This document shows, in pieces, positions 23,788 through 60,566 of a DNA stretch of 64,000 nucleotides. Under the pieces are notes generated by a model. That model was not told where the DNA came from. It saw only the letters and a list, made by a program, of their open reading frames with translations, and searched no databases. The DNA comes from Lotus japonicus. Lineage: Eukaryota; Streptophyta; Magnoliopsida; Fabales; Fabaceae. The position numbers were made by a program, and so were the translations under genes. The stretch's first letter is position 1, and every line of letters starts with the position of its first letter. The DNA lies in assembly GCF_012489685.1 (NCBI RefSeq), contig NC_080041.1, forward strand, positions 105,245,760 to 105,309,759, given 5' to 3'.

Positions 23788-25742
23788 CTAATAAAATGAA
23801 GAGAACAAGTCAATCTTGGCTATAATGGGCTTAAACATGATCTCAAGCTCCTTTACATAATCCTCAAGCACCTGTATTTCATATGCCTTATTATTACCAC
23901 CATCAAGCAAACTTGTAGCCTTTGTAATTGCAGAACTGATCTTCTCCTTTTCTGCTGATGTAAGCTTTAAATTAATACAATCATTCTTCAAGGCTTTCTT
24001 CATCTTGTAAATGTAATCATCCAAAGAATTCATTGCATTGGCCTTCCTAAGGAATTGCTTGTCTTCAGCCTGGAAACTCTCAGCTTCTTGAACCAATCTC
24101 TTAATTTCTTGGGTCGACAGCCTCCCTTTGTCATTGGTTATGGTGATCTCATTCTTACTGCCAGTGGTTTTTTCCTTAGCGGAAACACATAGAATGCCAT
24201 TTTCATCTATAGCAAAGCATACATCAAAAGGATGGCCACGAGGAGCAGGAGGGAGGCCAGAAAGATCAAAGGAACCGAGCAAATTGTTATCACTTGCTCT
24301 AGCTCTCTCACCCTCATAAACCTTAATCCGGACACTGGATTGGTTATCTGCACTTGTCTTGTAACCGTGTGTCTTCTTTACAGGAATAGTAGTATTCCTT
24401 GGAATCACCACACTCATGATAGCTCCTTTTATCCAAATACCAAGAGACAGCGGTGTAACATCATAGAGCACCAAGTCAGGCACATTCTTAATGCCTTTGC
24501 TCAACAAAGCAGCCTGGACAGCTGCACCGTAAGCAACGGCCTCGTCAGGATTGATACTCTTGCACAGACTCTTCCCCTTGAAAAATTCCTCCAATAACTC
24601 CTGCACTTTCGGAATCCTAGAAGATCCACCAACAAGGACAACATCATCTACACTACTCTGGTCCATCTTAGCATCATTGAGGCACTTATCCACTGTCTCT
24701 ATACATTCTCTAAACATGTCAATGTTAAGTTCCTCAAACCTTGCACGAGTGATAGAGGAACATAAATCAATGCCCTGAAATAAAGAATCTACCTCAACTG
24801 TGGTACATGTAGTCCATGAGAGTGTCCTTTTCGCCCTCTCGCAAGCAGTTCTCAACCTCCTCAGGGCTTTAGGATTTCCACTAATATCCAATTTGCTCTT
24901 CCTTTTGAACTCCTCTACAAAGTAGTTCACCATTCTATTATCGAAATCCTCTCCTCCTAAGTGAGTATTTCCTGCAGTGGCTTTAACTTTGAAGTCCTTA
25001 CCTTCAATTGTAAGGAGAGACACATCAAAAGTACCACCACCAAGGTCAAAGATGAATATATTTCGCGGTTTCTTACAATCATTTCTCTTGTCAAGGCCAT
25101 ACGCAATAGCTGCAGCTGTGGGTTCATTGATTATCCGCTTAACATTGAGACCAGCAATGGTACCCGCATCTATGGTAGCTTTGCGCTGAGAGTCATTGAA
25201 ATAAGCAGGTACAGTGATAACTGCATTCTTAACCGGTGACTCCAGATATGCCTCCGCAATTTCGCGCATCTTTGTGAGAACCATGGATGATATTTCTTCA
25301 GCAAAAAGATGCTTCTCCTTACCGTGATACTTAACAACAATCATGGGTTTGTCATCAACACCCGCAATAACCTTGAATGGCCATAACATCATATCATTTT
25401 TTATAATGGGATCACTGTACTTCCTACCAATCAACCTCTTAGCATCTGCGTCAATAATAACAAATTCTCAACTATTTATCATTTGTCAGCAGGCTAGTAA
25501 AAAAAACAGTTGAAAATTTTACCAAAAACAGTGTTCTCAGGGTTTGTAGCAGCCTGATTCTTAGCAGCTAAACCAATTAACATTTGATCATCTGTGAAAG
25601 CAACATAGGATGGAGTAATTGGGTTGCCTTGTTCATTGTGAATGATGTCCACTCTGCGTTGTTGATCATTCCAAACTGCAACACACGAGTAGGTGGTTCC
25701 AAGGTCGATTCCTATGGCACATCCCTCATCCCTTTTGCCCAT
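23788..25742 (-). CDS. Hsp70 copy 2 (cytosolic Hsc70-like, EEVD-less), intact
   Basis: Exon 1 is 25523-25742 and exon 2 is 23788-25445. The intron (25446-25522, GT/AG) splits the Asp codon before AKRLIG, the position conserved in plant cytosolic Hsp70s. It encodes 625 residues. ATPase motifs: [10 protein letters not shown] (~11-20), catalytic-type Lys in DAKRLIGR (~76), [14 protein letters not shown] (~203-216) and [10 protein letters not shown] (~345-354). The linker reads [13 protein letters not shown] (~397-409), not the usual DLLLLD. The substrate domain and lid follow, ending KIDLFSSFY; the GGMP tail and EEVD are missing. Arch positions equivalent to DnaK 404/429 are Lys413 and Ser438. 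Predicted 5' leader intron 25752-26085. A TATA box lies at 26222-26228. Family role: ATP-driven protein folding in the cytosol; a specialised substrate range is inference. Confidence 0.93.
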
Positions 25743-26221
25743 TCTTTCAATCTAACAATCAAAGGAACAAGTTGATGCATGGGAATAATGAATGGTGTAA
25801 AGCTCAACTTTATGTGTCACATTAGAATCAGATTTAGCTGAATATTTCTTTGATGGAATTAATTATGCACCGAATTTAAAACCATTTAATAAACTCGATT
25901 TGTTATCCTAAGTGTTAAACAACTCATCTTAGGTATTAATCTTAGAATGTAGTATGGCCTGTGCATTGTTTGCACAAAAGAACGTTCATGTGAGTTCACC
26001 CTAAAGCTAAAAATTATGTTTCGTTCATGAAAACAATGATAACATAAAAGAATAACACAGAACAAAAATAAGGAACAGATCTTACACTAAAAGAACGCAG
26101 GGAGCAAGAGACAAACAGGGGAGACGGTGATCACTTGAGGGAGAAAGAGAGCAGTTTCGTGAGTTTGTTAGCGCAAAATACTGAAAGTGAAGATGGAAAG
26201 TGACACTGGTTTGGGTTTCTC

Positions 26222-26228
26222 TTTTATA
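26222..26228 (-). promoter_or_regulatory. TATA box of Hsp70 copy 2
   Basis: CTATAAAAG on the minus strand lies ~480 bases upstream of the ATG and just before a leader that contains a predicted intron. It is conserved at the same place in copies 4 and 6. I found no convincing canonical heat-shock element next to it. Confidence 0.7.
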
Positions 26229-26274
26229 GAAGAACTAGTACTTTTTTTTTTGGTCAACGAAGAACTAGTACTTT
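26229..26274 (-). repeat. Micro-retroposon in the core promoter of Hsp70 copy 2
   Basis: A perfect 16-bp repeat GAAGAACTAGTACTTT (26229-26244 and 26259-26274) flanks 14 bp that on the minus strand read GTTGACC plus seven A. The paralogous site in block 4 (about 52136-52150) has one uninterrupted copy, proving an insertion. It lies immediately upstream of the TATA box. Confidence 0.8.
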
Positions 26275-26391
26275 GACCCATTCATTTATGTTTTTTTTTT
26301 TGTGTGTTTGTGTGTTTTTTTAAATCTTTTTTTAAACATATTTTATGGATAAAAAGAAATAAATTTATTTTAGATCTAAGAATTCATAAAT

Positions 26392-26525
26392 TTGTATGTT
26401 TTTGTCCCTTTAGCATAGCTCAAGTCGCAGGAGCTGGGGGGGACATATAGGTTGGGTAGGGGAGGTCCGGGGATCGATCCCTGGCGAGTGCAATTTATCT
26501 TTTCTATGTAAAAAAAATTGTATGG
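26392..26525 (+). mobile_element. SINE with paralogous empty site
   Basis: A-box-like TAGCTCAAGTCGCAGG (26416-26431) and B box GGATCGATCCC (26471-26481) precede an A-rich tail at 26510-26517. TTGTATG-T-rich repeats flank the element (26392-26404 and 26519-26531). Block 4 near 52243-52258 has the uninterrupted target, so the insertion followed the duplication. Confidence 0.85.
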
Positions 26526-26693
26526 TTTTTTTTATTGAATGTTTTTGTTTTTTGTTTTTTTAAGGTGCTATTTTATTTTTATCTTTTGTACTTATTTTCG
26601 TAAATGTTTGAGTTGTGAGTTTTTTTATATCTATTGAATAATTTATTATAGGGATTTGAAGTGACATATATGTGCTAAAGAATAACTATTAAA

Positions 26694-27333
26694 CTAGAAT
26701 TAGACCTACGGGATGGGCGGACGACACTATTACTTGACACTGATTGCAATGCAATTGTTGTTATTGGATAGGTCAGTGCAAACAGGATGCCAAATATATG
26801 GTTCTTAAAATCTAAACGGTTTTACTTAAAACTGAGGCAAGCTAGGATCCTTGTATCGTGAGACCCATTTGTCACTGTTATAGTCGACTATGGTCCGATC
26901 ACATTCGAGGATCACCGCCGCTGCTGCCATTTTTACCACTAACTACTCATCTACAACTCAACCACCAGGTGGGTTTCAAGAGTTTTGAGATTTAGGTTAA
27001 AGAAGGAAAACATTTTCTAATTATTTAATTTAATACTAAATCTTTCACATTGTAGTATTTAATGATTCGTTTTTTAAATTGTTAATTGATACTTTTTTTT
27101 AACATTATTAATTGTTGTGTTACTAATACAATATTGTGAGTAATGATGATTTAGTGTTGTGTGTTGTTACAAAAGTGTGAAAACAGAAATTGTTTGAGAA
27201 GATGCAAGGACATGGTTTAGATTGCCACCTAGAATTAAAAGCTGACATAGAAGATTTATATAAAAGTAAAGAGATAATATGACATCGCTACCGGCCTACC
27301 GCCCGCGCTTCAGAATTACTATATTATAATAGA
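26694..27333 (-). mobile_element. Non-autonomous Helitron with paralogous empty site
   Basis: On the minus strand it starts TCTATTATAATATAG (27333) and ends CTAG (26694-26697). It is inserted between A (26693) and T (27334). Block 4 near 52396-52410 shows the unoccupied AT target in otherwise collinear sequence. It is collinear with the Helitron at 1070-1750 but has a single 5' terminus. No protein is encoded. Confidence 0.9.
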
Positions 27334-27434
27334 TGTTTCATGAAGTTCATGACAGCTTTAAGTCATCCCTAATATGTTAGATAGTTACCAACAACCAAAG
27401 CTGTCAATAATATGAGTACATTTTTAATAAAACC

Positions 27435-28998: not shown

Positions 28999-30965
<1,967 letters not shown>

Positions 30966-32075: not shown

Positions 32076-32179
32076 GTACTTGTAGTTCCCCTAAAAAAAA
32101 TGTACTTGTGGTTCTAGTGATAAGTGAGTTAGACTCTGTAAAAATAAGAGTGATATATTACCAAAAAATAAGAGTGATA
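32076..32179 (+). repeat. Two micro-retroposon footprints (sister copies of those at 22.2-22.3 kb)
   Basis: First: repeats GTACTTGTAGTTC (32076-32088) and GTACTTGTGGTTC (32102-32114). Second: AAAATAAGAGTGATA at 32141-32155 and 32165-32179. Both insertions were inherited through the duplication. Confidence 0.6.
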
Positions 32180-35876: not shown

Positions 35877-36985
35877 CTAATTATCATCATTTGAAGATGT
35901 ATATTCATTCTCATTCTCATTCTCATCCTCATCCTCATCCTTATCCTCATCCTCATCCTCATCCTCATCCTCATCCACTTCCTCATATAAAGCTTCATCA
36001 TCTCTCAAGTGACCATCTAGCTCTTCATTTGAAACCGGGTCCACATGAGTTGTTGTATCTTGAAATGCAAACTCCAATGCATACCGATCATCAACTGTAC
36101 CCATTGGTTTGGTTTTAGTAACAACCCACCAATCAACTTTTTCTTTTATGTGTTTTGGGTAAGGCATGTAGTACACTTGAATCGCATTTGTTGCAAATAT
36201 GAAAGGGTCATATTTTGAATACCTTCTAGAACGATGAACCTCCACAATGTCATATTCTTTATTAACCTTCATCCCACGATTGATGACAGAATCAAACCAT
36301 TCACAGTTAAATAACACTAATTGTTTGATTGGTTCACCTGGGTACTCTAGCCGCAAAATCTCTTTAAGGACACCATAATAATAGTGTTCATCCTCTTCAT
36401 CATCACCCTCAACACAAACTCCAGAATTGATGGTTTTCTTATTGAAAGTCCACTCTTCTGTATGAAACTTAAAACCATTGACAAAGTAAATAGGCCAAGT
36501 CTCCACCTTTTTCTTAGGACCCCATGCTAAATGGTGTAATAACTGATCTATTACCATGTTATTTCTATCATGAACCTATCATTAAGCATAAACTCATTAG
36601 AATTTATATTACACAAACATAGGTTTAACTTGTGCAATATTAACTTAAAAGAACACGACACTTACATACGATCGAAACCAAGTTGGAAACTCAGATGCAG
36701 TAAGACCATCAATATCAGCTTGAGAGATATTTGGAAAGGTTGCCACCAAGTGTTGCTCAAAGAATCTAACAATGGTCACTATATTATTTAATGTTTCAAT
36801 CATTATGACTAAAAGAATGATCAAAATACAAATAAACTTACATACTTTATATATGGTTTAACTTCGTCACAGTTAAGTAGGATATGCAAATGGGCAGCAT
36901 GTAATTCCATATCATTTAAATACCGACTCTTACAAGTTCCATGCGATCGGCCGGGATGATTGAAGATAGATAAATTTCGTTCCTG
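35877..36985 (-). pseudogene. CACTA TNPD-like transposase, C-terminal fragment
   Basis: The minus strand from ~36985 encodes the segment RNLSIFNHPGRSHGTCKSRY and ELHAAHLHILLNCDEVKPYI, then ATFPNISQADIDGLTASEF, separated by introns. The 226-codon terminal exon (35877-36557) holds the DUF4216-type region (VLFNCEWFD, VHRSRRYSKYDPFIFATNA, PFIFATNAIQVYYMPYPK) and an Asp/Glu repeat tail. The catalytic core that should lie upstream is missing, replaced near 36990 by unrelated sequence. Confidence 0.8.
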
Positions 36986-37556: not shown

Positions 37557-37559
37557 CTA

Positions 37560-39780: not shown

Positions 39781-39825
39781 CACTCAATAGGAATACCAAA
39801 AGCAACGACAACCTCACAAACCCAT
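39781..39825 (+). other. Filler DNA copied from flanking MULE sequence
   Basis: These 45 bp (starting CACTCAATAGGAATACCA) duplicate the MULE sequence found at 33428-33438 joined to 39564-39598, i.e. the state before the CACTA inserted. They bridge the broken 5' LTR and gag. The pattern is that of templated filler at a repaired double-strand break. Confidence 0.8.
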
Positions 39826-42800
39826 GAACGCAGTCGAGAATCCTGTGTATCTTGTTTGGGAGCAGCAAGATTCTGCTCTATTCACATGGCTTCTCTCCTC
39901 GCTCTCGCCATCGGTGCTTCCTACGGTGGTCAATTGCACTCAGTCGTGGCAGATCTGGGAGGCGGTGCTCGATTTCTTCCAAGCGCACTCACTGGCGCAG
40001 AGCACGCAACTCAGATCTGAGTTGCGATCCATAACCAAAGGATCGAAGAGCACATCGGAATATCTCAAACGCATCAAATCGATCGTGAATGCGTTGATCA
40101 CCATCGGCGATCCCGTCACCTATCGCGAGCACCTTGAAGCTGTCTTCGATGGACTTCCCGATGACTATAGTCCTCTCATGACGATTGTTTACAATCGTGA
40201 AGCTCCGACTTCTGTTTCGCAAGTTGAGGCGATGATTATCACACATGAAGCGCGCCTGGATCGCACTCGATCTCGTCAGTTGAATGTGAATCCGCCTTCA
40301 GCGCTTTTGGCTCAGGCTGCGCCGCCACCAGCGCCTCCGCCAGCCCCGTCGCCCGCGACGACTGAAGCGAACTATGCTTCCAGTTCTCTGGATTCTTCCT
40401 TTGATGATCACTCTTATGAAGATCGCAGTGATGATCGCAACCGTGGTGGTTACAATGGACGTGGCGGTGGTCGCAACTCTCGTGGTGGTTAGGGTGATGG
40501 ACGTGGACGTGGTAAAGGAGGTAATCGCAGTGTTCAGTGTCAAATTTGTTATAAATATGGTCATGATGCAAGTATTTGTTATCATCGCGGTTCCTCTTCA
40601 GCTTCTACTGGAATGGTTGGTGGATATGGCATGAATTTTCCATTCAATATGCCTAATATGTCTGTGCCTTCTCCTATGATGCCTCAGTTTGGTTTTTCAC
40701 CTTTCTATGGCATTCCACAATTTGGCACACCTACACAGTTTGGTCACCAAGCTGGTTCTAGTTTTGGCCAACAGTTTGGTCCTGGTTTCTTCTAAGGCCA
40801 AGGCTCTGGCATAGGACTTCCCTCTCAGCAGTTTGGATTTGCTTCTGCTCCTGGTTCACAGTGGAACAATGGAGGTTCACAGTTTTCTGGTGGAGGCCAA
40901 AGGCTTGCAAATTCTACAACCAGGCCTCCTCAAGCTATGCTCACTGGTCTACCTTCATCAGTTGGCACATCCTCTGCTGCAGCTAATCTTAGCACCTGGT
41001 TTCCTGATTCTGGTGCAACTCACCTTGTCACAAATGATGCTTCTGTGCTTTCTGACAGTGTTTCACTTACGGGTAATGATCATATTCTTATGGGGAATGG
41101 ACAAGGTTTGCCTATTCTCTCTATTGGTTTACCTTCCTTTCCTTCTCCTTATCACACCAACACCACACTTACTCTTAGTAAACTTCTCTTAGTTCCAGAT
41201 ATTACCAAGAACCTTGTTAGTGTTAGCAAATTTGCTAAGGATAATAATGTCTACTTTGAATTTCACTCTTCTTATTGTGTTGTCAAATGTCAGGAAACTT
41301 CTAGGGTTCTCCTTCGAGGTAGTGTTGGTCCAGATGGCTTGTATATCTTTGAAGGCATGCATACTCCCAAGCAACCTTCTGTCAAAGTGTCTTCAGTTCC
41401 CTCAGCTGTTGTTTCTTCAGTCCCATCTGTTGCTGTTTCTTCTACTTACTCTACTGTTTTACCTAAGTCTGATGTATCTAGCACTAGTAGTACTTCTCTT
41501 GTATGTCCAACCTCTTATGGTTTGTGGCACTCTAGGTTAGGACATTCTCATCATGAGGCTTTCCATTCTGCTTTGACTTCTTGTAATATTCCAGTACCTA
41601 ATAAAGCAAAATTTCAAGTTTGTTCAGCTTGTTGCCTTTCCAAGTCTCATAGATTACCTTCTGCTACTTCTACTACTGTCTATAATACACCATTAGAACT
41701 TGTTTTTGCTGATTTATGGGGACCTGCATCCCTTGAATCATCTAGTGGTTTTTCCTATTTCCTTACTTGTGTAGATGCCTATTCTAGGTTCACTTGGATT
41801 TTTCCCATGAGAAGGAAATCTGATACTTGTTCTACTTTTCTCCAATTTCAAGCCATGGTTGAGTTAAAGTTTGGTGTGAAACTTAAGTCTGTTCAAACTG
41901 ACAATGGCATTGAGTTTAAGCCTCTTACCTCTTACTTTACAAAGTTAGGTATTGTTCATAGGCTTACTTTTCCTTACACACACCATCAGAATGGTAGTGT
42001 GGAAAGGAAGCATCGCCATATTGTAGAAACAGGTCTCTCATTGCTTGCACATTCTCATTTACCCTTTCAATTTTGGGATCATGCTTTTATGGCTGCCACA
42101 TTTCTTATCAATAGACTGCCCACTTCTGTTTTGGGGAATGTAAGTCCTTATTTCAAGCTGTTCAAGACTAAACCTGATTACAAGCTTCTGAAGGTGTTTG
42201 GTTGTGCTTGCTTTCCCCATCTCAGGCCCTACACACACTCAAAGTTGTCTTTGAGGTCTAAGGAGTGTGTGTTTATTGGGTACTCTTCATCTCATCAAGG
42301 ATATAAGTGCTTGGATAGTGATGGAAAGATTTATGTGTCCAGAGATGTGGTGTTTGATGAATTTAAGTTCCCTTATTCTGACAAGGCTTCTCCTCCTCCA
42401 AGTTCTTCTGCACCAGGTATCACTTTTGCTATACCAATTGTGCCTGCTGGACCTACTGTTATCCCCACTCAGCTAACTACAACAGTACCTACTACTTCTG
42501 TTAGTGCATCTCCTCAGCATTCAGCTTCAGAACAGCAGAGTCCTGTCCAGTCTCCACTGGTTTCTCAGGCTTCTTCAGGGCACTCTCAATCTGTTCCACC
42601 TGTGCAACCATTAGGTTCTTCACCTCCACCAGCTGGGAATGCTCATCCCATGCAGACAAGGTCTAAATCTGGCATTGTGATGCCTAGATTGTTTCCTACA
42701 TTGCTACTAACTCAAGCAGAACCTACAACAGCCAAGCAGGCTCTCAAGGACCCCAAATGGCAGGCTGCCATGCAGGCATAATTCGATGCATTGATGGCCA

Positions 42801-44269
42801 ACAACACCTGGACTTTGGTTCCCATTCCCAAGGACAGACAACCTATTGGCTGTAAATGGGTTTTTAGAGTCAAGGAAAATGCTGATGGCTCTATCAATAG
42901 GTATAAGGCCAGACTTGTGGCCAAGGGCTACCACCAAGTTAAAAGTTTTGACTACTCAGAGACCTTTTCTCCAGTAGTCAAACCCGTTACAATAAGAATA
43001 ATCCTCTCTTTGGCTATTACCAAGCAGTGGCACATCCACCAGCTTGATGTGAACAATGCATTCCTCAATGGTGCACTCCAAGAGGAAGTCTACATGACTC
43101 AACCCTCTGGTTTTCTACATTCAGACAAGTCCCTAGTTTATAAACTAAATAAAGCCCTCTATGGACTAAAACAGGCTCCTAGAGCTTGGTTTGAAAGGCT
43201 GAAAGCAGCCTTGATCAAGTATGGTTTCAGTCCTAGTAAATGTGATCCCTCTTTGTTCACATTCCATACAAAGGGCAGCTGCATCTACATTCTTGTTTAT
43301 GTAGATGATATCATCATTACTGGAAATTCCTTGCCTTTTGTTCAGAAGATAGTTCAGAATCTGAATTCAGAATTTTCTTTAAAGCAGTTGGGCAAACTTG
43401 ATTATTTTCTTGGTGTTCAAGTCCATCATTTGCAGGATAGATCCTTACTCTTGACTCAAACGAAGTATATTCATGATTTACTTGAGAGAGCTGATATGGG
43501 TGAAGCTAAGGGGATCTCTACTCCCATGATTGGTGGTGCAAAGTTAAGCAAGTATGGGTCTGATTACTTTGCTGATCTTACTCTATATAGGTCCATTGTA
43601 GGGGCCTTGCAATATGCTACTCTAACCATGCCAGAGATTAGCTTTGCAGTAAATAAAGTTTGTCAATTTCTCAGCCAGCCTTTGGAGGACCATTGGAAGG
43701 CTGTCAAGTGCATACTTAGGTACCTAAAGGGTATTATTCATCATGGCTTACATCTGAAACCCTGCTCCTTGACTTCTCTTGTACCATTGCTGGCATTTTG
43801 TGATGCAGATTGGGATTCAGATCCTGATGATAGAAGGTCCACTTCAGGGTCCTGTGTGTTTTTTGGCCCTAATCTCGTGTCTTGGAGTTCTAAGAAGCAG
43901 ACCTTGGTTGCTAGGTCTAGTACAGAGAAAGAATACAGAAGCTTGGCAAATACCTCTGCTGAACTATTGTGGATACAATCTCTTCTTCAAGAACTTAAAG
44001 TTCCCTTTACTCCTCCAAGAGTTTTCTGTGATAATATGGGTGTTGTAGCCTTGACTCACAACCCAGTTCTTCACACCCGCACCAAGCACATGGAACTTGA
44101 CATTTTCTTTGTGAGAGAGAAAGTTCTTAACAAGTCCCTCTTTGTGCATCATGTTCCTTCAGAAGATCAGTTAGCTGATATTTTTACCAAGGCCCTTGCT
44201 CCAACTTGCTTTGCTCATCTTTGTTCCAAACTCCATGTGGTTGAGAAAGAACTTTCTCAACCACCTTGA
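39824..44269 (+). pseudogene. copia gag-pol, 5'-truncated with three in-frame stops
   Basis: One continuous frame is interrupted by TAG at 40490-40492, TAA at 40793-40795 and TAA at 42779-42781. Domain order: gag remnant (UBN2-like) with the zinc knuckle CQICYKYGHDASIC (~40541-40582); protease DSGATHLV (~41006); GAG-pre-integrase HHCC region (LWHSRLGH to CSACCLSKSH); integrase D,D,E (FADLWGPA, VQTDNGIEF, NGSVERKHR); reverse transcriptase with YVDD (~43300); and RNase H (CDADW, STEKEYRS). This order (integrase before reverse transcriptase) defines Ty1/copia. It cannot make a full polyprotein: the start of gag and the leader are missing. Apart from the stops the frame is otherwise open. Confidence 0.93.
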
Positions 44270-49725: not shown

Positions 49726-51680
49726 CTAATAAAATGAAGAGAACAAGTCAATCTTGGCTATAATGGGCTTAAACATGATCTCAAGCTCCTTTACATAATC
49801 CTCAAGCACCTGTATTTCATATGCCTTATTATTACCACCATCAAGCAAACTTGTAGCCTTTGTGATTGCAGAACTGATCTTCTCCTTTTCTTTTGAGCTA
49901 AGCTTTAAATTAATACAATCATTCTTCAAGGCTTTCTTCATCTTGTAAATGTAATCATCCAAAGAATTCATTGCATTGGCCTTCCTAAGGAATTGCTTGT
50001 CTTCAGCCAGGTAACTCTCAGCTTCTTGAACCAATCTCTTAATTTCTTGGGTCGACAGCCTCCCTTTGTCATTGGTTATGGTGATCTCATTCTTACTGCC
50101 AGTGGTTTGTTCCTTAGCGGAAACAGTTAGAACCCCATTTTCATCGATAGCAAAGCATATATCATGACCATTTCCGCGAGGAGCACGAGGAATGCCGGAA
50201 AGAACAAAGGAACCCAACAAATTGTTATCACTGGCTATTGCTCTCTCACCCTCATAAACCGCAATCAAGACACTGGTTTGGTTATCTTTCACTGTCATGT
50301 AACCCTTTGTCTTCTTGACAGGAATGGTAGTATTCCTAGGAATCACCACACTCATGATATCTCCTTTTAGTGATGTACCAAGAGACAGCGGTGTAACATC
50401 GGAAAGCACCAGGTTTGGGACATTCTTAATGCTTCCACTCAGCAAAGCAGCTTGGACAGCAGCACCATAAGCAACAGCCTCATCAGGGTTGATGCTCTTG
50501 CAGAGATCCTTCCCCTTGAAAAATTCCTGCAATAACTCCTGCACTTTGGGAATCCTAGACGAGCCACCAACAAGGACAACATCATCTACACTACTCTTGT
50601 CCATCTTAGCATCATTGAGGCACCTATCCACTGTTTCTATACATTCTCTAAACATGTCCATGTTAAGTTCCTCAAACCTTGCACGAGTGATTGAGGAACA
50701 GAAATCAATGCCCTGATACAAACAATCTACCTCAACTGTGGTACATGTAGTCGATGAGAGTGTCCTTTTGGCCCTCTCGCAAGCACTTCTCAACCTCCTC
50801 AGGGCTTTAGGATTTCCACTAATATCCAATTTGCTCTTCCTTTTGAACTCCTCTACAAAGTAGTTCACCATTCTATTATCGAAATCCTCTCCACCTAAGT
50901 GAGTATTTCCTGCAGTGGCTTTAACTTTGAAGTCCTTACCTTTAATTGAAAGGAGAGACACATCAAAAGTACCACCACCAAGGTCAAAGATGAATATATT
51001 TCGCGGTTTCTTACAATCACTTCTCTTGTCAAGGCCATACGCAATAGCTGCAGCTGTAGGTTCATTGATTATCCGCTTAACATTGAGACCAGCAATGGTA
51101 CCCGCATCTATGGTAGCTTTGCGCTGAGAGTCATTGAAATAAGCAGGTACAGTGATAACTGCATTCTTAACAGGTGACTCCAGATATGTCTCAGCAATTT
51201 CGCACATCTTTGTGAGAACCATGGATGATATTTCTTCAGCAAAAAGATGCTTCTCCTTACCGTGATACTTAACAACAATCATGGGTTTGTCATCAACACC
51301 CGCAATAACCTTGAATGGCCATAACATCATATCATTTTTTATAATGGGATCACTGTACTTCCTACCAATCAACCTCTTAGCATCTGCGTCAATAATAACA
51401 AATTCTCAACTATTTATCATTTGTCAGCAGGCTAGTAAAAAAAACAGTTGAAAATTTTACCAAAAACAGTGTTCTCAGGGTTTGTAGCAGCCTGATTCTT
51501 AGCAGCTAAACCAATTAACCTTTGATCATCTGTGAAAGCAACATAGGATGGAGTAATTGGGTTGCCTTGTTCATTGTGAATGATGTCCACTCTGCGTTGT
51601 TGATCATTCCAAACTGCAACACACGAGTAGGTGGTTCCAAGGTCGATTCCTATGGCACATCCCTCATCCTTTTTGCCCAT
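49726..51680 (-). CDS. Hsp70 copy 4 (cytosolic Hsc70-like, EEVD-less), intact
   Basis: Exon 1 is 51461-51680 and exon 2 is 49726-51383, with the same intron position as copy 2. It encodes 625 residues. ATPase motifs are conserved ([41 protein letters not shown]). Flanks and the N- and C-terminal parts are almost identical to copy 2. The substrate domain differs strongly: after DVTPLSLG it reads TSLKGDIMS where copy 2 has IWIKGAIMS, and GYMTVKDNQ where copy 2 has GYKTSADNQ. The linker is NLVLSDVTP. The C-terminus is KIDLFSSFY with no GGMP tail or EEVD. Predicted leader intron 51690-52023; TATA box at 52128-52134. The unusual localisation of changes relative to copy 2 suggests selection or conversion within the domain. 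Confidence 0.93.
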
Positions 51681-52134: not shown

Positions 52135-53082
52135 GAAGAACTAGTACTTTGACCCATTCATTTATGTTTTTTTTTTTGTGTGTGTGTTTTTTTAAAGTTA
52201 TTTTATGGATCTAAATTTATTTTAGATCTAATAATTCATAAATTTGTATGTTTTTTTATTGAATGTTTGTTTTTGTTTTTTTGAGATGCTATTTTATTTT
52301 TATCTTTTGTTTTTTCAAATGCTCGATTGATGAGTTTTTTTTATGTCTATTGAATAGTTTATTATAGGAATTTAAAGTGACATGTATGAGCTAAGAATAG
52401 CTATCAAATGTTTCGTGAGTTTCTGACAACTTTAGGTCGTCCCTAATACGTCGGATAGTTACCAACAACCAATACCGTCAATAATATGAGTACATTTTTA
52501 ATAAAACCAAAATCATCTACATGTGGTGTAGCAAAAGAAAAGCACTTCTCACAACAAGGGGCGGGAAATATTATTTGGCTATGTGATATGTTATGATTTT
52601 AGTTGGGTAAATTTAATTTGCCATTTCTCTAAATTTTCCGCCAATGGAAAATGATGCCGTTGTCGAAGGGGCGAAATACATGTGTGTATTTCCCAACCCG
52701 ATTCTAATTATAATCTTGTTACCATCTAAGTGAGGCATAAGATTTAATCAACCCTTAGATGAGGGAAGCTAGGTTAACCCAATGCATTAAGAGATTGTTA
52801 GTTTAAGCTAAGCTTCACATGCAAGTGAAGTGAAAATGATGGATATATATCGTTATATTTCATTCTGACGTATTCCCACTGTTCTGGATAGTTTTGCTGG
52901 CTTGATGATTAAAATTTGTGCTCTCCTATCTTTTGGCCATGCTACTTTTATATGATTTTAGTTTTTACACGATCTAATGTCGTTCTATGATTGTAGGTGT
53001 TGGTTCTAAGATCAAAATGCTCAACTAAGTGGGAAGAGATTAAAACCAACAAATCAGGACAAAGGTAATATATAGTAAAATC

Positions 53083-54987
53083 TGTTGGGAAATAACACAG
53101 CTGAAGAAGTAAAATAAATCAGGAGCGCAATCAACAACACAAGAATATAACGTGGAAACTCCAAAATCGGAGAAAAAACCACAGCCGTTGTCAAAACCGA
53201 CAACCAGAGAATAAACACTATGTGAAAATTGTTACAACACATAGACTTCACTCTCAACCACCCCATAACCCTGGTACACCCACACTCTCCAAAGTAAATA
53301 TTTGAACTACATCTCACAATACTCTAAAACAAGAGCATAAGAGAAAAAGAAAACACAAATATAAACTTAAAGTGTTTTCAGGTGCTACATGTTTGGTGTT
53401 TTGGTGTGTTGAAACAAGGAGCCTAAGATCCCTATATATAGTCTTGAACCCTCCCACCCCTCACTAATCTAAGCGATGTGGGACTTCTCCAAGATGCATA
53501 ACTTGATCTTTTTTCTCCTTCATTAGCAATGTGGGACTTACATTGCAATCAACTCCAACAATCTCCACCTTGATTGTAATGACCTTCAGTCTTCATTGTC
53601 TATACCGACAATCATTGTCTTCACCGACAAACATAATTTTCATTGTCTATATACCGACAAATTAAATTATCATACTCCACCATAAAAGAGTACACTACAC
53701 TTGGAACTAAACCATTCCAAGAATTTTCTTCACTTGGAACTAAACCATTCCAAGAATTTCCACATGTCGAAACCTTGTTGAAAATTTATGGTGCAACTTC
53801 CATGTTGGCTTACTCCGGAAGTTCATCAGCCATCGACATAACCACGTACCTTGCATCAATGCCAACCAATGCCCGCACGCTATCACCACACACCTTGCAT
53901 CTATATCAACCAATGCCCGTGTGCCACCTGGACAATCTCATGCCCAGAACGCCTTGTGTAATCATGATTGCATCAACTCCTCCATCACAGCATCATCACA
54001 GCTGCATACCGACTGTAAACCGTGCACCAGGTTGGTTCCTAACTTGAACCTCCCAAAACAGCACTTCACAATGTCACACTTCTTCAGCACCTTCGCAATA
54101 CCACACAAAGTGATATCCATCGAACCGGAAGCTCTGATACCACTTGTTGGGGGAGACAGGGGAGCCCATGGGCCGAGGAGCAAGACACCAAGAGATCTTG
54201 GACACCACATCTTAACCCAAAACCTTAAGGCATTAGGTTTATGGGTCACATCTCTTATAAAGTCTTCTTCTCACCCACACTTAACCAATGTGGGACTCCA
54301 ATTCCGCACTTGAATTCTCAACAATCTCCCCCTCAAGTGCGAGTCACCTCCACATTATCATGGCCCCCCTCCGCGGAAGCTTATCCACTCTTGCACCGCC
54401 GTTCACTTCACCGCGTCAACGGAACCCGCCGCCTAGCCACACCGCTAGGAAGACTTTCGACACAAGGAGTCGTAACCATGGCTACACCAACCATCGGCTC
54501 TGATACCACTGTTGGGAAATAACACAGCTGAAGAAGTAAAATAAATCAGGAGCGCAATCAACAACACAAGAATATAACGTGGAAACTCCAAAATCGGAGA
54601 AAAAACCACAGCCGTTGTCAAAACCGACAACCAGAGAATAAACACTATGTGAAAATTGTTACAACACATAGACTTCACTCTCAACCACCCCATAACCCCG
54701 GTACACCCACACTCTCCAAAGTAAATATTTGAACTACATCTCACAATACTCTAAAACAAGAGCATAAGAGAAAAAGAAAACACAAATATAAACTTAAAGT
54801 GTTTTCAGGTGCTACATGTTTGGTGTTTTGGTGTGTTGAAACAAGGAGCCTAAGATCCCTATATATAGTCTTGAACCCTCCCACCCCTCACTAATCTAAG
54901 CGATGTGGGACTTCTCCAAGATGCATAACTTAATCTTTTTTCTCCTTCATTAGCAATGTGGGACTTACATTGCAATCAACTCCAACA
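53083..54987 (-). mobile_element. Young non-autonomous LTR element with composite interior
   Basis: Two 478-bp LTRs (53083-53560 and 54510-54987) differ at only two positions I can see. The 5-bp duplication AAATC flanks it (53078-53082, 54988-54992), and block 2 near 28355 has the empty site. On the minus strand a primer-binding site TGGTATCAGAGCC follows the 5' LTR (54509-54497), complementary to initiator Met-tRNA as usual. A purine tract precedes the 3' LTR (AAGGTGGAGATTG, 53573-53561). The 949-bp interior codes for no protein. Confidence 0.92.
54145..54323 (-). repeat. Foreign 179-bp LTR embedded in the element
   Basis: Begins TGTTGAGAATTCAAG on the minus strand (54323) and ends CTCCCCCAACA (54145). 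Upstream of it on that strand lies a purine tract GAGGGGGAGAT (54334-54324). Downstream is another primer-binding-type sequence TGGTATCAGAGCTTCC (54143-54128). It is a complete LTR of a different family with its own PPT and PBS on the outside, as in a tandem or recombinant cDNA. Confidence 0.75.
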
Positions 54988-55217
54988 AAATCCCGAGTTT
55001 CCATTTCTTGAAATTAGACCTTTCTTTCAATCCAGACAGGAAGGCAGTGAAACTATACCTTGCTAGTTGGAAATAAAGTTGATAGGGTTAAGTTTCATGC
55101 TCTAGTACTAGGCCTGAATAGATATTGCCCAAGCGAATGAATCTATGATCATTGTGAAATATTCTCCATTAGAATTATGACAATGAAACAAAATTGAAGT
55201 TTTGTCTTCCATGTGTC

Positions 55218-56056
55218 TTAAAGTAGTTCACCATTCTATTATCGAAATCCTCTCCTCCTAAGTGAGTATTTCCTGCAGTGGCTTTAACTTTGAATTCCTT
55301 TCCTTTAATTGTAAGGAGAGACACATCAAAAGTATCACCACCAAGGTCAAAGATGAATTTCGCTCTTCCGCACAATAAGTTCTCTTGTCTAGGCCATATG
55401 CAATGGCTGCAGCTGTGGGTTCATTGATTAACCGCATAACATTTTGACCAGCAATGGTTCCAGCATCTATGGTGGCTTTGCGCTGAGAGTCATTGAAATA
55501 AGCGGGCACAGTAATAACTGCATTCTTAACGGGTGACTCCAGATATGCCTCAGCAATCTCCCGCATCTTTGTGAGAACCATGGATGATATTTCCTCAGCA
55601 AAAAAGTGCTTCTCCTTACCGTGATACTTAACAACAATCATGGGTTTGTCATCAACACCCGCAATAACCTTGAATGGCCATAACATGATATCATTTTTTA
55701 TAATGGGATCATTAAACTTCCTACCAATTAATCTCTTAGCATCTGCATAAATATTAACAAATTCTCAACTATTTATCATTTTTCCAGCTTAATGTAAACA
55801 TTTAGAGTAGGGCAGTAAAAAAGTTGAAATTTTTACCAAAAACAGTGTTCTCAGGGTTTGTAGCAGCCTGATTCTTAGCAGCTAAACCAATCAACCTTTG
55901 ATCATCTGTGAAAGCAACAAAGGAAGGAGTAATTGTGTTGCCTTGTTCATTGTGAATGATGTCCACTCTGCGATGTTGCTCATTCCAAACTGCAACACAC
56001 GAGTAGGTGGTGCCAAGGTCGATTCCTATGGCACATTTCTCATCTTTTTTGCCCAT
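55218..56056 (-). pseudogene. Hsp70 copy 5, 3'-deleted pseudogene
   Basis: Exon 1 (55837-56056) is intact. Exon 2 starts at 55742 and remains alignable to about 55218, where it joins abruptly to sequence that in block 2 lies upstream of the next copy (near 28600). The deletion removed about two thirds of exon 2, its 3' flank and part of the spacer. In addition, four bases are missing near 55355 (within NIFIFDLGG), which shifts the frame, and one Gly of the GGG motif reads Asp. Nothing functional can be made. The 5' flank resembles copies 1 and 3. Confidence 0.93.
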
Positions 56057-57059
56057 TCTTTCAATCTAGCAAAACATAGTGATTAAAAAATACAAGTTGA
56101 TGCATGGGAATAATGAATGGTGTAAAGCTCAACTTTATGTGTCACATGAGAATCAGACTTAGCTGAATATTTCTTTGAAGGAATTTGTTATGCACCTAAT
56201 TTAGAACCATTTGATAAACTCCACTGTTATCCTAAGTGTTAAGCAATTCATCATAGGTAGACAAGTGTAATTTAGATATTTTCTTTGAGGAAATTGGAAT
56301 CCTAATCAGTGGCCAGCTTTGTTTATAAACTTTGTTAACCGCTACGAATCTACGCAGTTAGCACTCTTTCTGAGGTAACTGTAAAATTAACTTATGATTA
56401 GAGGATGGCTAACCTGGAAACAAATGGAGTTTAAAAATAGTTGTCATGAACCAACTATCTCAAAAGGTTACATTATAGAAATAGTTTGTTAATAACACTA
56501 TATTAGAGTTTTATAATAAAGTGGTCTAAAATAGCACAATGTAGTTTGGCCTGTGCATTGTTTGCACAAACATAAAAGAATGTTCATGTGTCTTCTTCAC
56601 CCTAAAGCTAAAAACTTAAATGTTTCATTCATGAAAACGTTAAAGAATAACAGAACCAAAATAAGGAACAAGTCATACCACCAAAAGAGAGCAGCACACA
56701 GGGGAGACGGTCACTCGAGGGAGAAAGAAGCAGCTTCGAGAGTTTGTTAGCGCAAAATACTGAAAATGAAGATGGAGAGTGACACTGGTTTAGTCTTTTC
56801 TGTTACAGATGATATCTTTGATGTTCTGTTTTTTTTTGTTAAAGTTGATATCTTGTATTTTACATTTAGATTTTTATGAAAATGGTATATTCAAAATTTT
56901 CATTTACATTTTGTTTCGTGGAAAAAATGATAGGGTTTCTCCAATTTCATAATTATTTAAAATAAAAAGAATAAAATGGTATATTCAAAATTTACATTAT
57001 CAAAGTTGTTGTTCTAGAGATAAGTAAGTTGGAAATGAGAGCGATAGTTCAAATTCCGA

Positions 57060-57360
57060 AAAAGATATATGTTGTGAGTGACATGAATTTGCAGAAAAAA
57101 TTAAAATATTACATCGGTTTAAAATTTAAAGTTTAAACTGCCAGAAAACGAAATAGTCTGCCGCAATATTCCATCGGTTCTGCAACCCCCGCGAGACCAC
57201 GTGTCCACGTCCACTGTAGTATTGACACTAAACTCAAATCACGCTCAACTATTACACTGAACTATCTTTATTTGGTTATTTGTCAAACTAAACTTCAATC
57301 TCACTCACAAATTACACTCCACCCCATTTATCCTATCATTGGCCGTGTTGATTTTATTAT
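57060..57360. other. Unit 3-specific spacer sequence
   Basis: Diverges from units 1 and 2 just where those carry the LINE. No coding sequence, and I see no defined element ends. Confidence 0.5.
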
Positions 57361-57819
57361 CAAAATGCTCTAGTAGGTGGGAACTGGGAAGAGATTAAAA
57401 CTAACAATTTGGGATCACAAGTAATATATAGTCAAATATTGTGTTTCCAGTTCTTGAAATTAGACCTTTTGTTCAATCCAGATTGGAAGGCACTGAAATT
57501 AGACCTTTAGTCAATCTATTCAACTAATAAAAAATGAGTGAAGATGCTAGTTGGAAATAAAGTTCATAGGGCAAGTTTCATGCTCTAGTATCTGTCCTGA
57601 ATAGATATTGCCCAAGGGAATGAATCTATTATCATCATGAAATGTTCTTCATTAGAAATTAGAATGGTTGAAAATGGTGGCTATGATGTTATTATCTGCA
57701 TTAAGACAATGAAACAAAAGTTCAAGTCTTGTTTTCTATGTGTCTTTTTCCAGTTTTTATAGAATAATGAATAACAACAATCCAATACTCCCTAGAATTT
57801 TTTTTGACATTCTCATGAT

Positions 57820-58165
57820 TGTAAGCAAAGTAAGTTCAATTCTCTATCCTTTTGTATGAGTTATTGGAACTTGAGGACAAGTTCAGAATTCAGATACACA
57901 AAAATGTTATTGGAACTCGAGGACAAGTCAAAACAGCTTCAAAGTTGGAAGGAATTTAAGGATAGGAATGCTAACTCTGGGAATGAAAAGCTTAAAGTGC
58001 AGATTTCACGCATATGAGGAAAGTAGAAGGAAAAGAAATTTGTAGAACTTCAACAACTTCTTTCTGGAGAAGGAAAAGGAACTCCAGACCAAAATTGTGG
58101 AGCTGGAAAGAAAATTGGAGAAATTAAATCAGACCATTGCTTCACAGAAGGTGCACTCATACTGA
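57820..58165 (+). pseudogene. Degenerate coiled-coil exon fragment, longest copy
   Basis: Shifting plus-strand frames give LELEDK, KNVIG, NEKLKVQIS, KFVELQQLL and KELQTKIVELERKLEKLNQT, with a GTGCAC donor-like end after ASQK. This shows the parent exon encoded a long coiled coil. It is broken by several stops and shifts. The parent is unidentified. Confidence 0.5.
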
Positions 58166-58461
58166 GTAATTTTGAGATTATTTTCCTATACTTCTCAAAT
58201 AAGCTTAGAGTTACAAGTTAACAACAGTTTCCCAAAAATCAATTCTGCTATGCAGCTAGCTGTTTTGAATAACGACTTTCTATATACAAAAAATGAAATG
58301 AAAAGAAAATGACAATGAAGGAAATGTACTTTGCATGCAACACAAACACTCTGGAGAACAAACACAAATTTAGCAAGAGGTAAAGTATGAGTCAGGGGAA
58401 CAAGTCAGGACGCATGTCGAGTGTCTAACTCAACCTCCACCACATATATTTATATAAACTT

Positions 58462-58526
58462 CCGGAACGAATTCACGGCCGTATCACTGACCGGCTATTA
58501 CTAGCGATTCCGGGGGCTTCATGTAG
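58462..58526 (-). other. 65-bp plastid 16S rRNA-like fragment
   Basis: On the minus strand it contains GGAATCGCTAGTAAT, GCCGGTCAG and GTGAATTCGTTCCGG in the order found near the 3' end of plastid small-subunit rRNA; the mitochondrial version differs at the middle block. It replaces the stretch AACTAATTCCTAATAAT-like sequence present 3' of the other copies. This is a nuclear insertion of plastid DNA, probably filler at a repaired break, with a few mismatches to my recollection of the plastid gene. Confidence 0.7.
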
Positions 58527-58589
58527 AACTTATTATAATAAAGGTTTTCGTTATCAAAGACAAAATGACTAGTCAGTACAAGCAAAGCT

Positions 58590-60566
58590 CTAATAAAATG
58601 AAGAGAACAAGTCAATCTTGCCCACAATTGGTTTAAACATGCTCTCAAGCTCCTTTACACAATCCTCAAGCACCTCTATTTCCTTTGGCTTACTATTACC
58701 ACCATCAAGCAAATTTGTAGCCTTTGTGATTGCAGAACTGATCTTCTCCTTTTCTGCTGATGTAAGCTTTAAATTAATACAATCATTCTTCAAAGCTTTC
58801 CTCATCTTGTAAATGTATTCATCCAAAGAATTCATTGCATTGGCCTTCCTAAGGATTTGCTTGTCTTCAGCCTGGAATTTCTCAGCTTCCTGAATCAATC
58901 TTTTAATTTCTTGGGTCGACAGCCTCCCTTTGTCATTGGTTATGGTGATCTCATTCTTACTACCAGTGTTTTTTACCTCAGCAGAAACAGTTAGAATGCC
59001 ATTTTCATCAATAGCAAACCATACATCAAATGGGTGACCACGAGGAGCACAAGGAAAGCCAGAAAGCCTAAAAGAACCCAAGAAATTGTTATCTCTTACT
59101 CCAGCTCTCTCACCTTCATAAACCTGAATCAGGACACTGGATTGGTTATCTACACCTGTCTCGTAACCCCGCGTCTTCTTTACAGGAATAGTAGTATTCC
59201 TTGGAATCACCACACTCATGATATATCCTTTTGCCACTATACCAAGAGACAACGGCGTAACATCTGACAAAACCAAGTTTGGAACCTTCTTAATGTCTCC
59301 ACTCAGCAATGCAGCCTGGACAGCAGCACCATAAGCAACAGCCTCATCTGGGTTGATGCTCTTGAATAGATCCTTCCCATTGAAAAACTCCTGTAGTAGT
59401 TGTTGCACTTTTGGAATCCTAGAAGATCCACCCACAAGAACAACATCATGCACTTTACTTTTTTCTATCTCAGCATCATTGAGGCACCTATTCACTGTCT
59501 CTATACATTCTCTAAACATGTCCATGTTAAGTTCCTCAAACCTTGAACGAGTGATTGAGGAACAGAAATCAATGCCTTGAAATAAAGAATCTACCTCAAC
59601 TGTGGTACATGTAGTCCATGAGAGTGTCCTTTTCGCCCTCTCGCAAGCAGTTCTCAACCTCCTCAGGGCTTTAGGATTTCCACTAATATCCAATTTGCTC
59701 TTCCTTTTGAACTCCTCTACAAAATAGATCACCATTCTGTTATCGAAATCCTCTCCTCCTAAGTGAGTATTTCCAGCAGTGGCTTTAACTTTGAATTCCT
59801 TACCTTTAATTGTAAGGAGAGACACATCAAAAGTACCACCACCAAGGTCAAAGATGAATATATTTCGCGGTTTCTTACAATTAGTTCTCTTGTCAAGGCC
59901 ATACGCAATGGCTGCAGCTGTGGGTTCATTGATTATCCGCTTAACACTGAGACCAGCAATGGTGCCCGCATCTATGGTGGCTTTGCGCTGAGAGTCATTG
60001 AAATAAGCCGGCACAGTGATAACTGCATTCTTAACAGGTGACTCCAGATATGCCTCAGCAATCTCGCGCATCTTTGAAAGAACCATGGATGATATTTCCT
60101 CAGCAAAAAGATGCTTCTCCTTACCATGATACTTAACAACAATCATGGGTTTGTCATCAACCCCCGCAATAACCTTGAATGGCCATAACATCATATCATT
60201 TTTTATAATGGGATCACTGTACTTCCTACCAATCAACCTCTTAGCATCTGCATCAATAATAACAAATTCGCAACTATTTATCATTTGTCCTGCTTAATGC
60301 AAACATTGAGAGTAGGGTAGTAAAAAAAAACAGTTGAAAATTTTACCAAAAACAGTGTTCTCAGGGTTTGTAGCAGCCTGATTCTTAGCAGCAACACCAA
60401 TCAACCTTTGATCATCTGTGAAAGCAACAAAGGAGGGAGTAATTGGGTTGCCTTGTTCATTGTGAATGATGTCCACTCTGCGATGTTGCTCATTCCAAAC
60501 TGCAACACACGAGTAGGTGGTGCCAAGGTCGATCCCAATGGCACACCCCTTGTCTTTTTTGCCCAT
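58590..60566 (-). CDS. Hsp70 copy 6 (cytosolic Hsc70-like, EEVD-less), intact
   Basis: Exon 1 is 60347-60566 and exon 2 is 58590-60247, with the conserved intron in the Asp codon. It encodes 625 residues. ATPase motifs are as in copies 2 and 4 ([42 protein letters not shown]). The linker is [13 protein letters not shown]. Arch region: IVAKGYIMS and GYETGVDNQ, giving Lys and Gly at the DnaK 404/429 equivalents. The lid ends [13 protein letters not shown] tail and EEVD are absent. Predicted leader intron 60575-61033 with a GTAACA donor; TATA box at 61151-61157. The upstream ATG within the intron frame (near 60284) is not the start: the spliced frame begins at MGKKDKGC. Confidence 0.93.

What the first reader, a model, noticed from the sequence alone, without database searches (positions are those of the whole stretch)
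23788..60566. Tandem Hsp70s with diversified peptide-binding arch
In DnaK, residues 404 and 429 close an arch over bound peptide; canonical cytosolic Hsc70 has Ala/Tyr there. Aligning through DVTPLSLG and the DNQ motif, the array has Lys/Ser (copy 2), Lys/Val (4), Lys/Gly (6), and in the pseudogenes Phe/Ser (3) and Ile/Val (1). Neighbouring contact positions also vary: 401-403 (IWI, TSL, IVA), 406 (A, D, Y) and 427 (K, M, E). The ATPase motifs and flanks are almost unchanged. Between copies 2 and 4, several substitutions fall within about eight bases at the arch codons (24428-24436 versus 50366-50374) while the adjoining 24 bases are identical. I infer a chaperone family diversifying its substrate cleft.
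Basis: partly seen in the sequence, partly recalled or inferred. Interest (0 to 1): 0.86.

Follow-up and report, generated by a model that had tools for sequence, protein, structure and literature searches.

The report
Plant Hsp70s with hypervariable peptide clefts
A large tandem family of Hsp70 chaperones in the legume Lotus keeps its ATP-driven machinery almost unchanged while residues that touch the bound peptide change under positive selection, a pattern familiar from immune recognition molecules and unexpected in a housekeeping chaperone.

Summary
Confirmed and extended. The window is Lotus japonicus. It holds six tandem Hsp70 copies: 2, 4 and 6 intact (625 aa, no EEVD tail), 1 and 3 broken, 5 truncated.

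The copies belong to a cluster of at least 35 Hsp70 loci over 1.66 Mb. Across 58 non-Lotus relatives, 9 of the 10 fastest-evolving of 618 sites lie in the published DnaK peptide cavity (30 SBDbeta sites; P=4e-12). In 29 Lotus paralogues with open exon 2, omega at 13 cavity sites is 2.09, against 0.27 for other SBDbeta sites. With a free synonymous rate at those sites, beta still exceeds alpha (p=1.9e-5); for the two arch codons alone, alpha is 0 and beta 3.8 (p=1.5e-5). Interleaved codons have low synonymous divergence, which speaks against local hypermutation. Gene conversion moved a cleft-bearing cassette between copy 4 and a locus about 200 kb away.

Striga shows the same hypervariable sites; EEVD-tailed Hsp70s do not. 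Six loci in the same cluster encode Hsp70-NB-ARC-TIR fusions, suggesting, without proving, an immune driver. Client specificity is inferred, not shown.

The parts
19275..21225 (-). copy 1, Hsp70 pseudogene (stops at codons 278, 617, 620; +8 nt at codon 455; 18-nt deletion near 505)
23788..25742 (-). copy 2, intact; exon 1 25523-25742, 77-nt intron 25446-25522, exon 2 23788-25445; 625 aa ending LFSSFY; identical to NCBI Lotus protein P0002
24127..24501 (-). copy 2 linker and SBDbeta (codons 389-513), the cassette with divergent history
24427..24438 (-). copy 2 codons for DnaK 401-404 (Ile Trp Ile Lys), loop L1,2
24349..24369 (-). copy 2 codons for DnaK 424-430 (His Gly Tyr Lys Thr Ser Ala), loop L3,4
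28999..30965 (-). copy 3, Hsp70 pseudogene (stop at codon 155; frameshifts at codons 88, 217, 488)
49726..51680 (-). copy 4, intact, 625 aa; backbone close to copy 2, SBDbeta shared with L019 (the gene of P0023)
50365..50376 (-). copy 4 codons for DnaK 401-404 (Thr Ser Leu Lys)
50287..50307 (-). copy 4 codons for DnaK 424-430 (Lys Gly Tyr Met Thr Val Lys)
55220..56056 (-). copy 5, Hsp70 fragment ending after codon 249, with a 4-nt deletion at codon 202
58590..60566 (-). copy 6, intact, 625 aa; exon 1 60347-60566, exon 2 58590-60247
59229..59240 (-). copy 6 codons for DnaK 401-404 (Ile Val Ala Lys)
59151..59171 (-). copy 6 codons for DnaK 424-430 (Arg Gly Tyr Glu Thr Gly Val)

Best explanation
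These are non-canonical cytosolic-type Hsp70s, part of a large birth-and-death tandem family. The ATPase domain, linker aspartate and pocket floor are kept by purifying selection, while side chains lining the peptide groove are driven apart by positive selection. Interlocus gene conversion homogenises backbones and exchanges SBDbeta cassettes between loci. The genome therefore carries a repertoire of ATP-driven clamps with different peptide specificities. Shown here: open genes, cavity-restricted hypervariability, dN/dS above 1 at those sites, and the conversion mosaic. Inferred: that the proteins are made, that they cycle on peptides, that their clients differ, and that the driver is biotic (pathogen or other foreign proteins or peptides).
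For: (1) Site rates on an NBD-only tree of 58 non-Lotus relatives: 9 of the top 10 of 618 sites lie in the 30-site DnaK SBDbeta cavity list; within SBDbeta, 10 of 10. (2) Fixed-site codon tests in Lotus, with sites chosen without Lotus: omega_HV 3.05 for copies 2, 4, 6 (p=1.6e-4), and above 1 in 10 of 10 pairwise, tree-free comparisons, 9 of 10 at p<0.01. (3) 29 Lotus paralogues: 13 cavity sites omega 2.09; alpha free 2.04, beta 4.83, p=1.9e-5 (closely alike with 30). (4) FEL on 32 paralogues: 8 of 10 positive SBDbeta sites lie in the cavity (Fisher 1.6e-4), against 5 of 309 positive in the NBD and 3 of 92 in the lid; 403, 404, 429, 430, 439, 458, 407 and 425 recur with four trees and without L014. 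(5) The 30 interleaved codons of 409-449 have low synonymous divergence. (6) Cassette exchange: copy 4 against L019 differs at 8 of 840 bases in codons 216-495 and 6-15 per 105 outside. (7) The same HV15 sites vary in Striga: pairwise difference 0.729 against 0.234 interleaved; 109 EEVD-tailed SBDs give 0.081 and 0.054. (8) SBD model pLDDT 85; best PDB matches include peptide-bound Hsp70 SBDs.
Against: There is no expression, protein or binding evidence. Two of the six window copies are broken and a third is truncated. The EEVD tail is absent and the lid is less constrained (omega 0.46 in 32 paralogues; 0.73-0.89 in the window copies), which would also fit decay. Of 526 FEL tests only site 403 survives a strict false-discovery cut; the rest of the case rests on pooled tests and enrichment. 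Two sites outside the cavity (388 and 491) are also FEL-positive with every tree. Sites 402, 427, 437, 424, 401 and 472 have high synonymous rates too, so their positive selection is not shown individually, and 424 and 437 are negative with the NBD tree. In the window copies alone, a 2.5- to 2.9-fold local rate with omega 1 could not be rejected; it is rejected only with the larger set. Conversion violates the single-tree assumption.
Confidence: 0.8

Rival explanations
1. Relaxed constraint: after duplication and loss of EEVD the proteins no longer chaperone, and the cleft drifts.
For: Broken copies in the window; weak constraint on the lid; no EEVD.
Against: NBD omega 0.198 and non-HV SBDbeta omega 0.265 in 32 paralogues; cavity sites exceed 1 rather than approach it; strictly alternating pattern, with 428 Thr, 431 Asp, 438 Ile and 440 Val kept beside hypervariable 427, 429, 430, 437, 439; 50 of 125 SBDbeta sites under purifying selection at p<0.1.
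Confidence: 0.08
2. Local hypermutation or import of divergent DNA by conversion, without selection on the protein.
For: SBDbeta dS exceeds NBD dS between copies 2 and 4 (0.22-0.28 against 0.08); conversion tract; window-only data allow omega 1 with a faster local rate.
Against: Interleaved codons in the same stretch show low synonymous divergence, pS 0.045-0.185 among copies 2, 3, 4, 6 (0.09-0.28 in pairs with copy 1); with 29 paralogues the 13 cavity sites have alpha 2.04, no higher than the background 2.30, and beta 4.83.
Confidence: 0.05
3. The variable surface is real and selected but does not bind client peptides; it is a docking face for a co-chaperone or other partner, or an interface that pathogen proteins attack.
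For: 439, 458, 402 and 437 may lie on the outer face of the sheet (recalled topology); cavity membership comes from simulations with five inhibitor peptides (PMC4408060); pocket-floor residues 426, 436 and 438 are fairly conserved.
Against: The set includes both arch residues and 403, 407, 425; 472, a pocket residue in human HSP70 (PMC4110032), is also hypervariable.
Confidence: 0.17
4. Immune-repertoire reading (a special case of the best explanation): the array is an arms-race locus in which cleft variants bind or sense foreign proteins, and Hsp70-NB-ARC-TIR fusions of the same cluster are signalling versions.
For: Six Hsp70-NB-ARC-TIR loci among the 35 in the cluster; birth-and-death, conversion and positive selection at contact sites.
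Against: The fusion-type loci have near-canonical clefts and lower variability (HV15 0.362 in 7 loci against 0.779 in 32); no infection or expression data; the same pattern occurs in the parasitic plant Striga.
Confidence: 0.35

Closest known systems
Canonical cytosolic Hsc70/Hsp70 (HSPA8, HSPA1A, Chlamydomonas HSP70A, plant Hsc70)
   Same: PF00012 over the whole protein; ATPase motifs, linker and SBD fold; about 55% SBD identity to plant Hsc70s
   Different: EEVD missing; arch not Ala/Tyr; one residue shorter near the PRG-P motif; 15 SBD positions hypervariable, several of them shown under positive selection
HscA, specialised Hsp70 with an altered arch (PMC8215388 passages)
   Same: arch residue changes linked to narrowed substrate specificity
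   Different: HscA has large residues at both arch positions and one known client; here dozens of paralogues have different arches
MHC peptide-binding groove (recalled, not tested)
   Same: conserved frame, contact residues under positive selection, multigene family with conversion
   Different: unrelated fold; no presentation partner known; ATP-driven; paralogues compared here, alleles not examined
Plant NLR clusters (recalled)
   Same: tandem birth-and-death, conversion, diversifying selection on contact surface; six fusions with NB-ARC and TIR in the cluster
   Different: copies 2, 4 and 6 carry no NB-ARC or TIR
Soybean HSP70 sub-families (PMC4585176, passages)
   Same: 61 soybean genes; a class with nine soybean members and none from rice or Arabidopsis; Glyma07g26550 is 633 aa, the length of P0039
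   Different: the words 'positive selection' and 'EEVD' do not occur in its main text; the passages seen do not discuss the cleft

Membership tests
Hsp70 (PF00012) | profile match across NBD, SBDbeta and lid | tested here: met
   632.5-646.9 bits for the exon-2 products of copies 2, 4, 6
Hsp70 (PF00012) | ATPase loops and linker aspartate kept | tested here: met
   DLGTT, E181-P-T, DLGGGT, GGS and D402 invariant over 40 aligned proteins (non-canonical legume, Striga and EEVD-tailed)
Hsp70 (PF00012) | SBD fold | tested here: met
   SBD model pLDDT 85; top Foldseek hits 6zhi, 4po2, also 1dkx; overall TM only about 0.5 with large rmsd, which I put down to a different placement of lid and sandwich
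Canonical cytosolic Hsc70 | C-terminal EEVD | tested here: not met
   proteins end LFSSFY
Canonical cytosolic Hsc70 | arch Ala404/Tyr429 | tested here: not met
   K/S, K/V, K/G in copies 2, 4, 6
Canonical cytosolic Hsc70 | chaperone activity | not testable with these tools
   no assay
Positively selected recognition repertoire | dN/dS above 1 at ligand-contact sites with a constrained frame | tested here: met
Positively selected recognition repertoire | different ligands bound by different members | not testable with these tools
   needs binding assays
NLR immune receptor | NB-ARC with TIR, CC or LRR in the same protein | tested here: not met
   no such domain in the exon-2 products of copies 2, 4, 6; NB-ARC and TIR present in six other loci of the cluster

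The most novel reading that the evidence does not exclude
Eudicots have used Hsp70 as the scaffold of a germline-encoded, groove-diversified peptide-recognition repertoire, in outline like MHC, built by tandem duplication, conversion of cleft cassettes and positive selection on contact residues. Some cluster members are wired to NB-ARC and TIR signalling domains. It may have arisen more than once: Striga, Asteraceae, Quercus, Fragaria and Oxalis carry divergent clefts of their own.
Probability: 0.3. Interest if true: 0.97.

Novelty: new variant of a known kind. Interest (0 to 1): 0.86.

Why it matters
The Hsp70 peptide groove is a textbook example of a conserved, promiscuous binding site: 109 EEVD-tailed SBDs show one to three residues at each of the 15 hypervariable sites, against 7 to 19 in 178 non-canonical SBDs from the first two searches. 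Finding it under positive selection, in dozens of paralogues per genome, would make Hsp70 specificity an evolvable trait. It would provide a natural library of groove variants for working out the specificity code, and it raises the possibility of chaperone-based recognition of foreign peptides in plants. The Hsp70-NB-ARC-TIR genes in the same cluster give a direct way to test an immune role.

Tried and rejected
Full-length AlphaFold model of copy 2: SBDbeta poorly modelled (block pLDDT down to 35), not used; replaced by the SBD-only model. No peptide complex could be modelled, so cavity membership comes from a published list for E. coli DnaK (residues within 0.5 nm of peptides in simulations). 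The seven lid residues of that list were not mapped.

First FEL run: the null fit failed at some sites (very small p where alpha was nearly equal to beta); those per-site p values were discarded and recomputed. The domain omegas and pooled tests are kept. The first free-scale fit had not converged for three sequences; it was repeated with many starts. L014 has a garbled stretch in codons 463-484, so the final tests were repeated without it.

In 'canonical' was defined by residues at 402, 403, 404 and 429, so low variation at those sites was built in. One search repeats the comparison with the EEVD tail as the only criterion.

Heat-shock elements: no perfect three-unit HSE within 1.3 kb of any of the six start codons, so heat induction was not pursued.

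'Legume-only' was my working idea until searches showed non-canonical clefts in Striga, Quercus, Centaurea, Bidens, Fragaria, Cannabis, Turnera, Oxalis and Jatropha. One origin or several is unresolved: the deep nodes of the tree are weakly supported and long branches may attract.

Nodulation or NCR peptides as the driver: considered and set aside, because non-nodulating lineages share the pattern (inference).

An rRNA-like stretch downstream of copy 6 was checked by Rfam and against E. coli genomes with no match.

Paper searches (all ten used) showed no title or abstract start describing cleft hypervariability in plant Hsp70s. This is a library of open papers only and no claim of absence in print is made.
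Full report
WHAT IS THERE. The window is from Lotus japonicus: the spliced product of copy 2 is identical to NCBI protein P0002. Six Hsp70 copies lie in tandem on the minus strand. Copies 2, 4 and 6 are open over 625 codons, with a short intron after codon 73. Copy 1 has stops and indels, copy 3 a stop and three single-base frameshifts, and copy 5 stops after codon 249, near a small direct-repeat element. The intact proteins lack the EEVD tail and end LFSSFY. The five clustered substitutions between copies 2 and 4 sit at 24432-24437, in the codons for 401-403.

HOW BIG THE FAMILY IS. A whole-genome search places the window at C1:105245760-105309759. By my count of that list, 35 Hsp70 exon-2 loci lie between C1 105.27 and 106.93 Mb. 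This is a lower bound, since 52 of 245 candidates were scored and copies 1, 3 and 5 are not listed. Of the 35, 24 have divergent clefts (3 in the window; L009-L019, L023 and L030-L038, fetched and read), 3 have canonical clefts (L003, L004, L025), 7 are of a fusion type (L020-L022, L026-L029) and 1 (L024) is another form.

WHICH POSITIONS VARY. From the 120 listed proteins plus copies 2, 4 and 6, 18 canonical-like proteins and 31 outside 500-660 aa were left out and 4 duplicates or isoforms dropped, leaving 70. Site rates were estimated on a tree from the NBD only. With Lotus removed, 58 proteins remain; those with a named organism are legumes, some come from unnamed sequence. The ten fastest of 618 sites are DnaK 430, 425, 437, 427, 429, 404, 458, 439 and 472 plus one site in the C-terminal lid. 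Nine of the ten are among the 30 SBDbeta residues of the published cavity list for E. coli DnaK (PMC4408060, Table 4, section read), hypergeometric P=4e-12; within SBDbeta it is 10 of 10 (P=6e-7). The fifteen fastest SBDbeta sites (HV15) are 401-404, 424, 425, 427, 429, 430, 437, 439, 458, 462, 464 and 472. All but 462 and 464 are in the list. Some neighbours hardly vary: in the set of 70, 428 is Thr in 69, 431 Asp in 70, 438 Ile in 65.

POSITIVE SELECTION IN THE WINDOW. HV15 was chosen without Lotus and then tested in Lotus. With my own GY94 code, omega at HV15 is 3.05 for copies 2, 4, 6, 3.33 with copy 3 and 2.97 with copies 1 and 3 (one-sided p=1.6e-4, 2e-6, 2e-6), against 0.195-0.235 for other SBDbeta codons. 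In pairwise tests without any tree, omega_HV is above 1 in 10 of 10 pairs, 9 at p<0.01; the weakest is copy 4 with copy 1 (1.62, p=0.13). If HV15 is given its own rate, omega 1 with a 2.5- to 2.9-fold rate cannot be rejected from these few sequences. Against that, the 30 interleaved codons of 409-449 have pS of only 0.045-0.185 among copies 2, 3, 4 and 6 (0.09-0.28 in pairs with copy 1), and relative to them omega_HV is 6.6-9.5 (p=2.4e-5 or lower).

THE LARGER DATA SET. I then used 32 Lotus paralogues (copies 2, 3, 4, 6 and 28 of the 40 loci fetched). The rest of those 40 were left out as canonical-cleft or fusion-type (L020-L022, L025-L029), too divergent (L024, L042, L044) or duplicate (L031); L001-L008 and copies 1 and 5 were not used. 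Omega is 0.198 in the NBD, 0.265 in SBDbeta outside HV15, and 0.46 in the lid. FEL finds 10 of 125 SBDbeta sites with beta above alpha at p<0.1; 8 are in the cavity list (Fisher 1.6e-4): 403 (4.7e-5), 429 (1e-3), 430, 404, 439, 407, 458, 425. The other two are 490 and 491. The NBD has 5 of 309 and the lid 3 of 92. The two HV15 sites outside the cavity, 462 and 464, are under purifying selection.

ROBUSTNESS. Dropping copy 3 and L012, the two with stops inside codons 76-599, and using four different trees leaves the same eight cavity sites positive; 388 and 491, outside the cavity, are also positive each time, and 424 and 437 turn negative with the NBD tree. Dropping L014 as well (29 left) changes little. 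For the 13 cavity members of HV15 omega is 2.09; with the synonymous rate free, alpha is 2.04 (background 2.30) and beta 4.83, p=1.9e-5. For 404 and 429 alone omega is 1.66 (p=0.0055); with the synonymous rate free, alpha is 0 and beta 3.84, p=1.5e-5. Individually 402, 427, 437, 424, 401 and 472 are not shown, because their synonymous rates are also high. Only 403 would survive a strict correction over 526 sites. Exon 1 of the outside loci was not checked for integrity.

CASSETTE EXCHANGE. Copies 2 and 4 differ at 0-6 of 105 bases per window outside codons 356-495 and at 15-20 of 105 inside. Copy 4 and L019 (the P0023 gene; about 200 kb away) differ at 8 of 840 bases in codons 216-495 but at 6-15 of 105 on either side. 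Copy 2's SBDbeta is closest to L015 and L016 (96% and 94%), while its NBD and lid are closest to copy 4. Copy 2 and P0011 (L016) still differ at 8 of 15 HV sites but at 3 of 30 interleaved and 3 of 80 other SBDbeta sites.

BEYOND LEGUMES. The last protein search reached Striga. Thirteen SBDs from 11 Striga proteins (P0201 dropped for coverage) differ pairwise by 0.729 at HV15, 0.234 at interleaved and 0.205 at other SBDbeta sites. The 109 SBDs of EEVD-tailed proteins give 0.081, 0.054 and 0.093. Divergent clefts also occur in Quercus, Centaurea, Bidens, Fragaria and Cannabis and in Turnera, Oxalis and Jatropha. A tree without SBDbeta gives legumes, Striga, Asteraceae and Fragaria each their own well-supported clade and puts Oxalis among canonical genes with weak support. 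Deep branching is unresolved.

MECHANISM. PMC8215388 (passages) states that 404 and 429 form the arch, that replacing either modulates DnaK specificity, and that eukaryotic cytosolic Hsp70s have Ala and Tyr there. PMC4110032 (passages) lists the human pocket residues. Here the pocket floor (426 Tyr/Phe, 436, 438) is largely kept, while the rim, arch, flanking strand and pocket residue 472 vary. The likeliest reading is an Hsp70 whose clamp and ATP cycle are intact but whose peptide preference differs from copy to copy. The binding part is inference. A biotic driver is suggested by six loci of the same cluster (L020, L022, L026-L029) in which Hsp70 NBD and SBDbeta are followed by NB-ARC and TIR domains in one open frame. 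Those have near-canonical clefts, so the link is by neighbourhood only.

STANDING. Membership in Hsp70 is met. Membership in canonical Hsc70 fails on EEVD and on the arch. I rate this a new variant of a known kind, with strong sequence evidence and untested function.

Noticed in passing
L020, L022, L026, L027, L028, L029 (G000 C1 105.78-106.67 Mb): Six long open frames (872-957 aa) encode Hsp70 NBD+SBDbeta followed by NB-ARC and C-terminal TIR domains, with the Hsp70 lid cut short; they lie in the same Hsp70 cluster. L021 looks like a shortened relative without them.
   Followed up: partly
window about 53082-53560 and 54509-54990: A 300-base core repeated at 100% identity 1427 bp apart, like the ends of a small non-autonomous LTR element, lying beside the truncated copy 5 that ends at 55220.
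   Followed up: no
window 39791-44269 (+): Copia-type retrotransposon frames: gag, integrase and RVT_2, between copies 3 and 4.
   Followed up: no
window 35880-36575 (-): DUF4216 frame; DUF4216 often goes with CACTA-type transposons (recalled).
   Followed up: no
window 58455-58540 (-): About 70 bases in the 3' flank of copy 6 look like the 3' end of a plastid-type 16S rRNA (recalled resemblance); Rfam and E. coli searches gave no match.
   Followed up: partly
copies and relatives, DnaK position 392 region (c2 residue 401): The linker residue just before the near-invariant Asp (VLLL-D in DnaK) varies in the family (LVLYD, LVLSD, LVLLD, LVLFD, LVLQD), which might alter interdomain signalling.
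   Followed up: no
P0017 against copy 6: The NCBI isoform X2 of copy 6 lacks a stretch inside exon 2 (about 30 residues of the NBD), perhaps a cryptic splice or an annotation artefact.
   Followed up: no
P0001, P0003, P0004, P0005, P0008, P0009, P0010, P0022, P0032, P0189, P0190, P0192, P0264: Public gene models carry two Hsp70 substrate domains in one protein of 740 aa or more, perhaps fused neighbours, so tandem arrays in other plants may be mis-annotated.
   Followed up: partly
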